From: Xylogone sp. PMI_703
Lineage: Eukaryota; Ascomycota; Leotiomycetes
Direction of reading: 5' to 3'
NCBI GenBank assembly: GCA_021399445.1
Contig: JAJTUQ010000003.1
Coordinates: 7,254,001-7,318,000 of the forward strand
Length of the DNA: 64,000 nt
The translations under genes were made by a program, and so were the position numbers. The notes under the pieces were generated by a model, which saw only the letters and a program-made list of their open reading frames with translations, was not told where the DNA came from and ran no database searches. This document shows, in pieces, positions 35,830-39,808 of the stretch (positions are counted from its first letter, which is position 1; each line of letters starts with the position of its first letter).

Positions 35830-36362
35830 CTAAGCCAACGCAACACACTCAATCTCAATCGGCACCCCCTTCGGCAACTGATAAACCGCAACGCAGCTCC
35901 TCGCCGGCTTATGCGTAAAGAACTTCTCATACGTAGCATTCATCTCCACGAAGTTATCCATCGTCGTCAAGAACACATTGACTTTCACGACCTTGCTGAG
36001 GCTGGACCCCGCAGCTTCGAGAACGGCTGTCAGGTTCTTGATGCAGAGCTCCGTCATCTCGGAGATGCTGTTGGTGGGCTGGGTGAGGATGGTTCCTTCT
36101 GCGGTGCAGGGGATTTGGCCGGAGCAGTAGATCGTTTGCGGGGTGGCTATGGCTTGGGACTGTGATAGTGTATATGGTTAGTTTATGGGAATCAAAATTG
36201 CAGGGCTCTCTCTCTCTCTCTCTGCTGAGGAAAGACTTACGTATGGGCCGGCAGCTGTTGTTCAATTGGGTGTCAGTTCTTATCGTGGATCCGAATTGCG
36301 GGGGAGGAGGGAAGCATACGGAAAGCTGCATCTTTGGTGAACACTGGTTTGAAATCGGCCAT
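35830..36362 (-). CDS. RidA/YjgF-family enamine/imine deaminase
   Basis: Three exons (36362-36320, 36254-36241, 36159-35830) give 128 residues, the usual length. The middle exon is only 14 nt. It completes Pro15 and encodes Ala-Gly-Pro-Tyr, the conserved start of the PAGPYSQAI signature, so it cannot be omitted without losing frame. Downstream are YCSGQIPCTAEG, LTAVLEAAGSSLSKVVKVNVFL, and the C-terminal ARSCVAVYQLPKGVPIEIECVA with the Arg that contacts ligand carboxylates in this family. RidA hydrolyses reactive enamines from PLP enzymes such as threonine dehydratase. Mitochondrial or cytosolic location cannot be told; no presequence is seen. The second intron has a GA/CT microsatellite at about 36206-36223. 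Confidence 0.9.
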
Positions 36363-36782
36363 TGTGGGGGATTTTATATTATAGTACTATTTGAATGAAT
36401 TGGGATTTCGGACGGCTTCAATATCAAAACGTTTCTATCCGTTGAATTGAAAGGTGTTGAAGGTTTTATAGCTCGTTACTCGCTACGCCCTGCAGGAGGG
36501 GTAGTTACTACACACTCCGTAGGGCCACTTGCTTAGCTGATTCAAGCTCCATCACTGCTACACTATTTAGCGTTACCAACTTACAGTTATTTCAATTATA
36601 CAGTCTTGGTTGGTTTTCTTAAATTACATTCTCGGCCTTATTATTAACCTATACACAATCAAGAGGTGGAACCATGTTAATGTTTCCTCCGATAACCGGA
36701 GAAGCTGAGGCTTACGGAAGTAAATGTATCATCAGTACTTGACTCGTAAATTGCTGGGTTATATCATTTGGCTTAAGCGACC

Positions 36783-36834
36783 ACATCCTTCACGCTACGA
36801 ATCAAGACTGCAGGTTCGATCCCTGCGTCAGTCA
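36783..36834 (+). pseudogene. tRNA-Arg-like 3' half (relic copy)
   Basis: The stretch matches the last 53 nt of the tRNA gene at 37257-37378 (on the opposite strand), including the last intron bases, CTACGAATCA, the box B core GGTTCGATCCC and a T-arm stem GCAGG/CCTGC. A T-rich tract follows (from 36836). The 5' half is not a cloverleaf: the expected partner of the 3' acceptor strand GTCAGTC is missing. Upstream, 36716-36734 weakly resembles the start of the insertion in the intact copy. I take this as a decayed duplicate. Confidence 0.6.
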
Positions 36835-37241
36835 TTTTATTTTTTTTACAGTAAAATGCTTATTTTTAGTGAAAGTACATATTTTGAAAAGAGAAGTAAC
36901 TAGCCTAGGCTAGTGAATTACCTTCAAAAATGCTTAAGTGCATGTAGCAATAAGAACAAAACCGATACATAAGATGTTGGTTTTATTACTTTATTGATTT
37001 GTTTGAAGTGTTAGCAGTTTCACTGTAGGTAAACAAGCAAGGTAGAATCATGATGAGTGAGAATGTTGAAAAACTTCGCTTTTTCATCTATTCGGCTGAA
37101 TTTTCAGGCACTTGATTTCATACATTATTTAAGGTGTTTTAGTATTATCACAGTCAAGAATATTGGGCGATCATGTCAGAAATAGCTATTTTAGGCCTTC
37201 AATTATTGCAAGAGTGATAAAAAAAATAGGCATTCTACTAT

Positions 37242-37248
37242 AAAAAAA
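37242..37248 (-). terminator. RNA polymerase III terminator (T7)
   Basis: A run of seven T on the minus strand lies 8 nt past the tRNA 3' end, the expected place and form for Pol III termination. Confidence 0.65.
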
Positions 37249-37256
37249 TCATTTAA

Positions 37257-37378
37257 TGACCAACGCAGGGATCGAACCTGCAATCTCCTGATTCGTAGCT
37301 GAAGGATGTTAATATATTAGGAAAACTGTTTAGACATGATAGACTTACTCAGGCGCCTTGCCATTGGGCCAGTTGGCC
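37257..37378 (-). tRNA. tRNA-Arg(ACG) split by a 50-nt insertion
   Basis: Removing 37348-37299 joins 37378-37349 (30 nt) to 37298-37257 (42 nt) into a perfect 72-nt cloverleaf. It has acceptor stem GGCCAAC/GTTGGTC with one G-U pair, box A TGGCCCAATGG, anticodon stem CCTGA/TCAGG with loop CTACGAA (anticodon ACG, Arg), variable loop AGATT, T-arm GCAGG/CCTGC with box B GGTTCGATCCC, and discriminator A. The body resembles yeast tRNA-Arg(ACG). The insertion lies between positions 31 and 32, not at the universal eukaryotic 37/38 site, and begins GTAAGT and ends CAG. A T7 terminator follows after 8 nt. It may be functional if the insertion is removed, or a pseudogene if not. Confidence 0.75.
37299..37348 (-). 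other. 50-nt intron-like insertion in the tRNA-Arg gene
   Basis: Read on the minus strand, the insert starts GTAAGT, ends CTTCAG and has ATATTAAC (a TTAAC branch-like site) 10 nt before the end. These are the marks of a small spliceosomal intron. Its length equals that of the smallest mRNA introns in this window (for example 50 nt at 27064-27113). It does not form the usual position-37/38 tRNA intron. Confidence 0.6.
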
Positions 37379-38992
37379 ATTGGAGTTGTGCGGAGTCGCT
37401 TAATTAAATATAATCATCTGTTGACAACTACCAATCTTCTCGACCAGTCGCGGTGACCACCAAACATTTCACGCTTGTCGAAACGCAAGAGCAACATAAA
37501 GGCGCAATACTAATAAGTTGATTTCTCCGTGTTTTGACGCCAGAGTCGGACTGAGAATAAAGCCTGCACGTGTATCTCGATCCCGGCACTACGGGATTGT
37601 AAGCCTCTCCACGTACAAGGGTTGAGTTTCAGGGCTTGTGCCTAGTCAACAAGATATCGTATCACAGATTTCTTGTAGTGCTTTGAACGTGTTGACTAAT
37701 AAATAAAGTGGACATGAGCGTAAAGTTTAATTCTTATCCTAAACAAAATGACACCAAATGATGTGAAAACAGTGGATGGATAATACACAGATTTCAGTAT
37801 TTTATTTGATGTCACACAAAGCATGCTTACAGAAATCGCAATATTCACATGGCTTCTCAATCCCTGTTGCCATAAACGGACTTGATCTGAAGAGTAAGCT
37901 TTCAGGTTCGCTTCCCCAGATCATGGTCACTGCCGCCAAAGTCGTACAAGGGACTGCTGGTTCCATCCGGAACAACAAAATAAATACGAAAGGCCCAATG
38001 GTATCATATTGACAGATGTACATTGAGCCTTCAGTGTTGGTGAAGACAGCTAAAAAGGTAGAATATCATTTGCCTGATCGAGCATGTTTATTTTCGCATC
38101 TAGAATTCAACGCCTTCTTTGCTTGTCTGGATGTATGACACAGCTCGGCTATGGCTTTGCACAAGCTGGCTGCGCAAAACAGCAGCCAAACCCACTGGAA
38201 CAGCTACTAATTTGCTTATACAGTGATACTTTCTTTATAAGTATTACTAGTTGATGTGTTATCTAATTAATCTGTGATCATTAATAAGATACTCAAGCTT
38301 GAAGTTATGTTCGACGACGCCAAAGTGGTCGCGCTATCATGATCACGTGCACCGAAGCTAAGACTAAAAGCGAATTTCAACGACATCTCATTACATGAAC
38401 ATCACCTATTTCCCTCAACATGCCAATTCCAAGATTTAAACTGGGTTATTTGTCTTGTTTGTTTAATATTAGTCAAGGGTACCCGGTCGGCAGACTTTTT
38501 TTCTGAAAGTTCAGCACCAAAATCTGATTGCTCCTCCCTGATACGCCTATCCTACTATGGACAACCACACTACGGGACCCGGCGACTGATAAGATTAGTA
38601 CAATAGGAACTTTTCAATCATCACTGCTTTTATTATTCAACTGAAAGCGACTATATCGATTCCTAGAGATAAACGGATATGACTTGAGATCCCAAAATAC
38701 AACTCCCTTACTATTAGTCCAGAACTGCAACGCATCACACTTGGAACCTAGACAACTACCCAAACGCCAGAATACCCTCGCTTCAGCTTCATAATCATCA
38801 ACACTGCAGAACCTACATGGAAGAACAAAAGCTTCCGCAAAAAAAGGAACACAATCATGCATTCATTACAAATAAATTATGTCACGTGATGGATACTCCA
38901 ACAGAGGGAGTGATTTGGTGCTCTTTGAAGCAGCAATATATTCAGCTGCGGCAGCCACTTTTTTCGTCAGCACTGATTGAGGGAATCACAAA
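37379..38992. other. 1.6-kb spacer without a supported gene
   Basis: This is upstream of the tRNA gene on one side and the 3' flank of the 38993-39808 gene on the other. Short frames (37776-38012 plus, 38023-37802 minus, 38862-38614 minus) have no recognised domain. A hairpin-capable stretch at 37577-37604 (GATCCCGGCACTACGGGATT) is present but is not a tRNA T-arm. Confidence 0.5.
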
Positions 38993-39808
38993 TTAGGATA
39001 TCATACAGTGGGATCTCATCTTACGGGTAGCTCGTCTCTGCTTCTTGCAGGACTCATTATGTTCACCCCAATGAGCATCTGGGCACCCACAGGATCCACC
39101 AATAGCGATTTCATTCACTTGAGCACTGCAACATTCAGGCTCATAAGAGTTGAATACATCGTCGCAACAGTTGCAAAATCCATTACCAGGGAGTGGTGAC
39201 AACTCTGGAGTTGGCAGCCGCGGAGGTCTTGGAGCCGGCGGTGGTTCTAATGTTCTATGGGAGAGTGGCGGGAGAGACTTGACGTGGTATTTGGAATCCA
39301 GCTCAGCCGTTCGGCTAAGCATTGTGTTGATCTTTTGCGTTGCTGCCTTGGCTTTGGAAGAGCGATTTTGGACTTCCCGACGATATCTCGTTGGCAAGTT
39401 TGGATCCATGTCAGGTGAGTAGTCACCGGAAAAAAGTTCAGTAGATTGCGACAAATTCTTTTTAGTTGATTTCTTTTGTCTGCCCTCATAATCTTTCATG
39501 GTTAAATTTCTTCCCGTCACTGAATGCGTCAAAGTTCGCATTGGCTGCACAAAGGCGCGATTCCGTTTTATCAGAAGTCGCTGTTGAGATGTCATTTCTC
39601 CTGAGTGCTTTTCATTGTCTATAACTCCAGAAGCCCAGTGCACTCTTTTGGAAGTTTCCTTGAGAGCCTGTGCTGTCCCCAGAGAGTGAAGTTGTAGGAA
39701 GTCAACTTCATCATCTGAGAAAGGAGTCAATGAGGCACTGGAAGTGTATCCCAAGTGCTTGGAAGTCATAATGGAAATGTTTGTTGAAGTGCAGTAGTCT
39801 GGAGTCAT
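38993..39808 (-). CDS. Hypothetical protein with Cys-rich C-terminus
   Basis: This is a single 271-residue frame with ATG at 39808. I do not recognise it. The first 160 residues are charged, polar and probably disordered (RRLLIKRNRAFVQ-like, KKSTKKNLSQS). A Pro-rich stretch (LEPPPAPRPPRLPTPELSPL) leads to a C-terminal segment with ten Cys and two His (CNCCDD, ECCSAQ, GSCGCPDAHWGEHNESC) that could bind zinc. There is no signal peptide, so a secreted effector is unlikely. Codon use looks coding and no better frame overlaps it. The call is based on length and composition only. Confidence 0.55.
   Translation of the reverse strand: MTPDYCTSTNISIMTSKHLGYTSSASLTPFSDDEVDFLQLHSLGTAQALKETSKRVHWASGVIDNEKHSGEMTSQQRLLIKRNRAFVQPMRTLTHSVTGRNLTMKDYEGRQKKSTKKNLSQSTELFSGDYSPDMDPNLPTRYRREVQNRSSKAKAATQKINTMLSRTAELDSKYHVKSLPPLSHRTLEPPPAPRPPRLPTPELSPLPGNGFCNCCDDVFNSYEPECCSAQVNEIAIGGSCGCPDAHWGEHNESCKKQRRATRKMRSHCMIS

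What the first reader, a model, noticed from the sequence alone, without database searches (positions are those of the whole stretch)
37257..37378. tRNA-Arg(ACG) gene interrupted at position 31/32 by an mRNA-type intron
Seen: excising exactly 50 nt restores a cloverleaf with perfect anticodon and T stems, intact boxes A and B and a T7 terminator. The 50 nt begin GTAAGT, end CAG and carry a TTAAC branch-like site at a normal distance, all marks of spliceosomal introns. Known: nuclear tRNA introns sit at 37/38 and are cut by the tRNA splicing endonuclease; a spliceosomal intron in a Pol III gene has a precedent in the U6 snRNA gene of fission yeast. Inference: either the spliceosome processes this Pol III transcript, or an mRNA intron moved into a tRNA gene and silenced it.
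Basis: partly seen in the sequence, partly recalled or inferred. Interest (0 to 1): 0.85.

Follow-up and report, generated by a model that had tools for sequence, protein, structure and literature searches.

The report
mRNA-type introns inside fungal tRNA genes
In this fungus several transfer-RNA genes, including the one in this window, are interrupted by introns that look like those of protein-coding genes, which suggests that the mRNA splicing machinery also helps to make tRNAs.

Summary
The window's tRNA-Arg(ACG) gene (minus strand, exons 37378-37349 and 37298-37257) is split at 31/32 by exactly 50 nt with a GTAAGT donor, TTAAC branch-like site and CAG acceptor. The same 50-Mb ascomycete genome holds at least 15 tRNA genes (9 anticodons: Arg ACG, TCT; Pro AGG, TGG; Thr AGT, TGT, CGT; Ile AAT; Leu TAA) with 16 such inserts of 50-58 nt at seven positions, none 37/38. 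Removing them (and four classical 37/38 introns) gives a regular tRNA in 15 of 15. All 16 start GT and have a TAAC/TAAT 10-15 nt from the end; 14 of 16 end YAG. Of 29 classical introns listed in this genome, none is GT-AG. Uninterrupted Thr(AGT) genes equal the joined exons of interrupted ones; one Pro(AGG) gene carries two mRNA-type introns plus a classical one, yet its exons spell the same tRNA as its paralogues. I infer that the spliceosome processes these Pol III transcripts. Two Arg(ACG) copies end TG and CG, which is unexplained. No RNA data were available. Precedents: fission yeast U6, lichen rDNA; ten literature searches showed no report for tRNA.

The parts
37349..37378 (-). exon 1 of tRNA-Arg(ACG), 30 nt (positions 1-31): acceptor 5' strand, D arm, 5' strand of the anticodon stem
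37361..37371 (-). box A (TGGCCCAATGG), intact against the recalled consensus
   Evidence: read from the sequence
37299..37348 (-). 50-nt mRNA-type intron at position 31/32
37343..37348 (-). 5' splice site GTAAGT
37308..37312 (-). branch-like site TTAAC, branch A 10 nt from the intron end
37299..37301 (-). 3' splice site CAG; the corresponding ends of the two other complete copies are CTG and CCG
37257..37298 (-). exon 2 of tRNA-Arg(ACG): anticodon loop CTACGAA, T arm, acceptor 3' strand and discriminator A
37269..37278 (-). box B (GGTTCGATCC), intact against the recalled consensus
   Evidence: read from the sequence
37242..37248 (-). T7 run, likely Pol III terminator
36784..36833 (+). relic of a fourth Arg(ACG) copy: intron end CATCCTTCACG plus the 3' exon, followed by a T8 run; no recognisable 5' half
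   Evidence: fourth hit, 89%; 20.9 bits

Best explanation
The window holds a working nuclear tRNA-Arg(ACG) gene interrupted at 31/32 by a spliceosomal (U2-type, GT-AG) intron, one of a set of such introns that have entered tRNA genes of this fungus. Shown: the anatomy; the recurrence in at least 15 genes with 16 introns at seven positions; exons that join to regular tRNAs; filled and empty paralogues with the same exons. Inferred: Pol III transcribes the gene from its intact A and B boxes; the major spliceosome recognises donor, branch site and acceptor by intron definition, as for the similarly short predicted mRNA introns of the window, and removes the intron as a lariat; the RNA then folds and matures. 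In the four genes that also carry a classical 37/38 intron (Pro AGG copy 3, Pro TGG, Ile AAT, Leu TAA), the spliceosome would act before the tRNA endonuclease, which measures a folded tRNA body (recalled). At least some introns were gained separately, since paralogous Pro(AGG) genes carry them at different sites.
For: Arg(ACG): three complete copies found, all with the insert at the same place; exons of window copy and copy 2 differ by one compensatory pair (C28-G42 to T-A), while 43 of 50 aligned insert positions match; no uninterrupted ACG 3' half. Arg(TCT): two genes with inserts at 25/26 and identical exons, and two degenerate copies joined at that junction. Pro(AGG): three genes with one and the same 72-nt exon sum but inserts at 19/20, 19/20, and 14/15 plus 32/33 plus a 19-nt intron at 37/38. 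Thr: four genes with inserts at 21/22; two uninterrupted Thr(AGT) genes equal the joined AGT exons. Pro(TGG), Ile(AAT), Leu(TAA): one gene each; an Ile paralogue lacks the 26/27 insert. Signals over 16 inserts: 12 GTAAGT, 16 with NTAAC/T 10-15 nt from the end, 14 YAG. Control: 0 of 29 classical introns are GT-AG. All 15 genes have a run of five or more T starting within 14 nt of the 3' end.
Against: No RNA evidence. Two of three complete Arg(ACG) copies end CTG and CCG, although GT-AG averages 98.7% in annotated fungal genomes (PMC7072748, passages). Ascertainment: the four Thr genes and one Pro(AGG) gene were found with GTAAGT patterns and Leu with a CTAAC pattern; Pro(TGG) and the 32/33 intron of the third Pro(AGG) gene were in the GTAAGT list. 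Raw pattern counts do not exceed the reversed control (18 v 42, 33 v 57, 64 v 112); only the individually checked genes count. Minimum-energy folds of the joined Arg(TCT) and Pro(AGG) exons are not clean cloverleaves, though those of Arg(ACG) nearly are and ARAGORN accepts all. The mRNA introns used for comparison were predicted by the same consensus, so they are no independent test. The tRNA census is incomplete (63 of 1824 candidates scored), so uninterrupted genes may be missed.
Confidence: 0.85

Rival explanations
1. The interrupted genes are dead: mRNA introns landed in tRNA genes and silenced them, and other, uninterrupted genes supply the cell.
For: Uninterrupted Thr(AGT) genes exist (L055), as do uninterrupted Thr(TGT) genes of another sequence (L057, L062) and an Ile(AAT) gene without the 26/27 insert. 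Two Arg(ACG) copies lack a terminal AG, and the window also holds a relic. No expression data.
Against: No uninterrupted Arg(ACG) 3' half was found, and similarity searches with Arg(TCT) and Pro(AGG) found no intact uninterrupted gene. Exon sums are identical between paralogues whose introns have diverged (Pro AGG three of three, Thr AGT two of two plus two uninterrupted genes, Arg TCT two of two). Donor, branch and acceptor motifs are kept within Thr and Pro introns that drift elsewhere.
Confidence: 0.08
2. The inserts are ectopic tRNA introns cut by the tRNA-splicing endonuclease, as in Cyanidioschyzon and nucleomorphs; the GT-AG look is incidental.
For: Ectopic tRNA introns exist in a red alga and in nucleomorphs (PMC4090602 and PMC3978253, passages), and many of those of Guillardia form no defined BHB motif, so its absence is not decisive. 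The fungus has many introns in the anticodon loop, so the endonuclease pathway is presumably present. Two Arg(ACG) copies have no AG.
Against: The inserts share splice-site sequences across unrelated positions while 0 of 29 classical introns do. Minimum-energy folds of six precursors show no shared helix across the junctions (by eye). Lengths of 50-58 nt differ from the 3-24 nt given for Guillardia.
Confidence: 0.05
3. The Arg(ACG) gene is cut at 37/38 after all, giving an anticodon loop GUAAGUA (anticodon AAG) instead of CUACGAA.
For: The intron start supplies a U at position 33, and both cuts leave 72 nt (sequence).
Against: An AAG (Leu) tRNA should have a long variable arm (recalled); this one has five variable nucleotides. 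The ACG loop is kept in all three copies. The reading cannot explain inserts in the D arm of other tRNAs.
Confidence: 0.01

Closest known systems
U6 snRNA gene of Schizosaccharomyces pombe (PMC8917221, one passage; original papers by Tani and Ohshima seen only as citations there)
   Different: An snRNA, not a tRNA; no overlap with the tRNA-splicing pathway.
Spliceosomal introns in rDNA of lichen fungi (PMC8527467, passages; Bhattacharya et al. 2000 seen only as a citation)
   Same: Spliceosomal introns outside protein-coding genes in ascomycetes; yeast removed them from Pol I transcripts.
   Different: rRNA and Pol I, not tRNA and Pol III.
Ectopic tRNA introns of Cyanidioschyzon merolae and of nucleomorphs (PMC3978253, PMC4090602, passages)
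   Same: tRNA genes interrupted at positions other than 37/38, sometimes several times.
   Different: Attributed to the splicing endonuclease; 3-24 nt in Guillardia; no GT-AG signals are mentioned in the passages read.
Classical nuclear tRNA introns at 37/38
   Same: Present in the same genome, in four cases in the same gene.
   Different: Position and signals; 0 of 29 are GT-AG here.

Membership tests
spliceosomal (U2-type) intron | GT donor in the GTRAGT consensus (consensus recalled) | tested here: met
   16 of 16 start GT; 12 GTAAGT, one each GTAAGC, GTGAGT, GTAAGA, GTTAGT; partly ascertained by GTAAGT
spliceosomal (U2-type) intron | branch site of the fungal type (YTRAY, recalled) near the 3' end | tested here: met
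   16 of 16 have NTAAC or NTAAT with the branch A 10-15 nt from the end, one of them GTAAC; window insert TTAAC at 10; the Leu one was found by CTAAC
spliceosomal (U2-type) intron | AG at the 3' end | tested here: inconclusive
   met in the window and in 14 of 16 inserts; not met in two of three complete Arg(ACG) copies (TG, CG)
spliceosomal (U2-type) intron | exact exon joining restores the product | tested here: met
   15 of 15 exon sums are called as the expected tRNA by ARAGORN (12, 2, 1); four genes need a classical 37/38 intron removed too; uninterrupted Thr(AGT) genes equal the joined exons
spliceosomal (U2-type) intron | excision as a lariat by the spliceosome | not testable with these tools
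   no RNA data
classical nuclear tRNA intron (endonuclease type) | position 37/38 | tested here: not met
   positions 14/15, 19/20, 21/22, 25/26, 26/27, 31/32, 32/33, numbered by hand from the exon lengths
ectopic BHB-type tRNA intron | bulge-helix-bulge at the junctions | tested here: inconclusive
   folds of six precursors show no shared motif by eye; no dedicated BHB model was run
functional nuclear tRNA gene | tRNA fold, boxes A and B, T-run terminator | tested here: met
   window gene; all 15 genes have a run of five or more T within 14 nt. Boxes of the other 14 were not scored, and box A of the third Pro(AGG) gene is interrupted
functional nuclear tRNA gene | expression as charged tRNA | not testable with these tools
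   no RNA data

The most novel reading that the evidence does not exclude
Nuclear tRNA genes of this fungus have been invaded repeatedly by spliceosomal introns, and essential tRNAs (all Arg(ACG) found, apparently Arg(TCT) and Pro(AGG) too) now depend on the mRNA spliceosome. Some genes need two unrelated splicing machineries in sequence, spliceosome then tRNA endonuclease, to make one tRNA, and the anticodon loop itself can be built by the spliceosome. In the tRNA setting the 3' splice site may even be relaxed to TG and CG.
Probability: 0.75. Interest if true: 0.95.

Novelty: new variant of a known kind. Interest (0 to 1): 0.9.

Why it matters
Textbook separation: the spliceosome works on Pol II transcripts, while nuclear tRNA introns sit at 37/38 and are cut by a protein endonuclease. 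Here both kinds of intron occur in one genome and even in one gene, with filled and empty paralogues. That makes two open questions directly testable: whether the spliceosome can act on an uncapped, fast-folding Pol III transcript, and how new spliceosomal introns arise, since a 72-nt RNA with a known product shows every gain precisely. In practice such genes are poorly seen by standard annotation: Rfam at gathering score reports 5 of the 14 interrupted genes in the 13 loci given to it and none in the window, so the phenomenon may be overlooked in other fungi.

Tried and rejected
Rejected: the 37/38 (AAG) reading of the Arg(ACG) gene; a single degenerate gene; the idea that the isotypes missing from the Rfam list are missing because of mRNA-type introns. 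Asp(GTC) and Glu(CTC), which I first suspected, carry classical introns. Gly(GCC) was not found and stays open. Loci from the pattern lists that were read and show no tRNA gene of this kind: L108, L117, L122, L123, L110, L133, L134, L143. Most other places in the lists were judged only by eye from the printed match (those also by the model search), so further interrupted genes may be among them. Folding of precursors gave no common structure. The protein search (one query) gives named relatives mostly in Pezizomycotina, none close; nothing more precise is claimed about the organism. No related species could be compared: the genome tool holds no relatives for this assembly, and I ran no search of the viral, prokaryotic or plasmid collections. 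The script printed the intron of one Pro(AGG) gene for another, because both lie in one 3-kb locus; searches have them right. The permissive Rfam run on 36000-39000 gave only three sub-threshold hits, E 5.6 to 9.4.

Not in print, as far as searched: ten full-text searches of the open-access library; the listings and passages of eight papers were seen, no paper was read whole; no report of spliceosomal introns in nuclear tRNA genes was seen. Most subscription journals are not covered.

Full report
What was checked. The window belongs to a 50.1-Mb assembly in 25 contigs. A PhoD-like protein of the window has its named relatives mostly in Pezizomycotina, none close (best 120 of 2127 hits listed). 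On the minus strand, 37378-37257 reads as two exons of 30 and 42 nt around a 50-nt insert. Joined, they form a tRNA with anticodon ACG, with boxes A and B by eye and a T7 run. The insert starts GTAAGT, has TTAAC with the A 10 nt before its end and ends CAG. The scans (ARAGORN; Rfam at gathering score) report no tRNA in 64 kb; ARAGORN with introns allowed finds the gene.

Copies of the same gene. A search of the whole assembly with the gene finds three complete copies and one 3' piece. All three complete copies carry the insert at 31/32. The exons of copy 2 differ from the window copy only in a compensatory pair (C28-G42 to T-A); copy 3 also has a changed D loop, one nucleotide shorter. Of 50 aligned insert positions, 43 match between window copy and copy 2, but GTAAGT and ATTAACATCCTTC are unchanged in all three. 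The insert ends differ: CAG, CTG, CCG. A pattern for an ACG anticodon followed at tRNA distance by a standard box B gives 12 places against 20 for the reversed control; three are these copies. Of the other nine, all scanned with a tRNA 3'-half model, one matches, and it is an Ile(AAT) gene. A variant anticodon loop or box B would escape this pattern. So Arg(ACG), the only expected reader of CGU and CGC in a eukaryote (recalled), seems to be encoded only by interrupted genes. Those codons occur: 53 and 52 of 5968 codons in twelve stop-to-stop frames of the window.

The same thing in other tRNA genes. Two Arg(TCT) genes have inserts of 55 and 57 nt at 25/26; two degenerate relatives (L126, L127) are joined at that junction. 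Three Pro(AGG) genes share one 72-nt exon sum: two carry an insert at 19/20 (56 and 57 nt); the third carries inserts at 14/15 (55 nt) and 32/33 (58 nt) and a 19-nt classical intron at 37/38. Four Thr genes, anticodons AGT twice, CGT and TGT, have inserts of 52-56 nt at 21/22. Two uninterrupted Thr(AGT) genes in one locus (L055) have exactly the exon sum of the interrupted AGT genes, a filled and empty site in one genome; uninterrupted Thr(TGT) genes of another sequence exist too (L057, L062). Pro(TGG) has a 56-nt insert at 21/22 plus a 14-nt classical intron; Ile(AAT) a 52-nt insert at 26/27 plus an 11-nt classical intron; Leu(TAA) a 52-nt insert at 26/27 plus a 13-nt classical intron. An Ile paralogue (L092) lacks the 26/27 insert. 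In all this is 15 genes, 9 anticodons, 16 mRNA-type inserts and seven positions (counts; positions numbered by hand).

Signals and controls. Of 16 inserts, 12 start GTAAGT and one each GTAAGC, GTGAGT, GTAAGA and GTTAGT; all 16 have NTAAC or NTAAT with the A 10-15 nt from the end; 14 end YAG; lengths are 50-58 nt. Eight predicted mRNA introns of the window, chosen by these very signals from 17 candidate pairs, are 47-66 nt (seven) and 94 nt (one); they show what the genome's introns may look like but are no independent test. Of 29 introns that ARAGORN places in the anticodon loop of other tRNA genes, 5 start GT, 2 end AG, none is GT-AG within a shift of 2 nt. A random 53-mer has a GTRAGY start with probability 0.0009. 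Ascertainment matters: the four Thr genes and one Pro(AGG) gene were found with GTAAGT patterns and Leu(TAA) with a CTAAC pattern; Pro(TGG) and the third Pro(AGG) gene were also in the GTAAGT list. The inserts that came in by similarity, by the tRNA family or by an anticodon pattern, without use of splice signals, are Arg(ACG) three, Arg(TCT) two, the second Pro(AGG) gene, the 14/15 insert of the third, and Ile: 8 of 8 start GTRAG and 6 of 8 end YAG (sequences). The raw hit counts of the patterns do not exceed their reversed controls (18 v 42, 33 v 57, 64 v 112), so only the genes checked one by one are evidence.

How it most likely works. Inferred: Pol III transcribes through the insert, since box A, box B and terminator are present and only their spacing grows (in the third Pro(AGG) gene box A itself is interrupted, its end partly re-made by the intron start). 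The spliceosome recognises the short intron and joins the exons; the tRNA then folds. In four genes the classical 37/38 intron would be removed afterwards by the tRNA endonuclease. [quoted passage not shown] Ectopic tRNA introns of a red alga and of nucleomorphs are attributed to the splicing endonuclease (PMC3978253, PMC4090602, passages), which does not fit the shared splice-site sequences here.

What does not fit. Copies 2 and 3 of Arg(ACG) end CTG and CCG, while GT-AG averages 98.7% in annotated fungal genomes (PMC7072748, passages). Either these copies use a rare 3' splice site, or they are recently dead, or removal in this gene does not need AG. Their exons are conserved, which argues for function until recently. 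If they are dead, the window copy may be the only working Arg(ACG) gene found. Energy folding gives the joined Arg(ACG) exons a near-cloverleaf, but not the joined Arg(TCT) and Pro(AGG) exons, although ARAGORN accepts all. Gly(GCC) was not found by its pattern. The tRNA census is incomplete (63 of 1824 candidates scored), so uninterrupted genes could have been missed; an Ala(AGC) gene absent from the Rfam list turned up by chance.

Verdict. By anatomy these are spliceosomal introns in a new kind of host gene; excision is not shown. Filed as a new variant of a known kind, with high interest.

Noticed in passing
window 36784-36833 (+): 3' half of a fourth Arg(ACG) copy, preceded by the intron end CATCCTTCACG and followed by a T run; the 5' half is not recognisable. 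It lies tail to tail with the intact gene, 423 bp away.
   Followed up: partly
L126 (G000:C21:5036632-5039698, match at 1501-1567) and L127 (G000:C12:87860-90925, match at 1501-1566): Degenerate Arg(TCT) copies without the 25/26 insert; by eye the 3' flank of L126 resembles that of the interrupted genes, so it looks like a duplicated locus that never had, or exactly lost, the intron.
   Followed up: partly
L010 and L011 (G000:C1:6080983-6081109 and 6083438-6083562): Arg(ACG) copies 2 and 3, about 2.4 kb apart, whose inserts end TG and CG instead of AG.
   Followed up: partly
L136 (G000:C20:4000540-4000900): Pro(AGG) gene with three introns: 14/15, 32/33 (mRNA-type) and 37/38 (classical). The first lies inside box A, and its start GTGAG partly restores the box A sequence.
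   Followed up: yes
L131, L132 (G000:C19:7489900-7490180 and 7490720-7491000): Inverted pair of Glu(TTC)-like genes about 0.8 kb apart, by eye with poorly paired acceptor ends.
   Followed up: no
L141, L142 (Asp GTC) and L138-L140 (Glu CTC): Asp and Glu genes carry introns in the anticodon loop of the classical kind and are absent from the Rfam list, which therefore undercounts.
   Followed up: partly
G000, whole assembly: No Gly(GCC) anticodon loop at tRNA distance from a standard box B was found (3 chance-like places against 7 for the reversed control).
   Followed up: no
window 37864-37925 (+): Stretch that looks tRNA-like by eye (TTTCAGGTTCGCTTCCCCAGATCATGG) near the gene, perhaps another relic; the tRNA 3'-half model did not match it at E 1.
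   Followed up: partly
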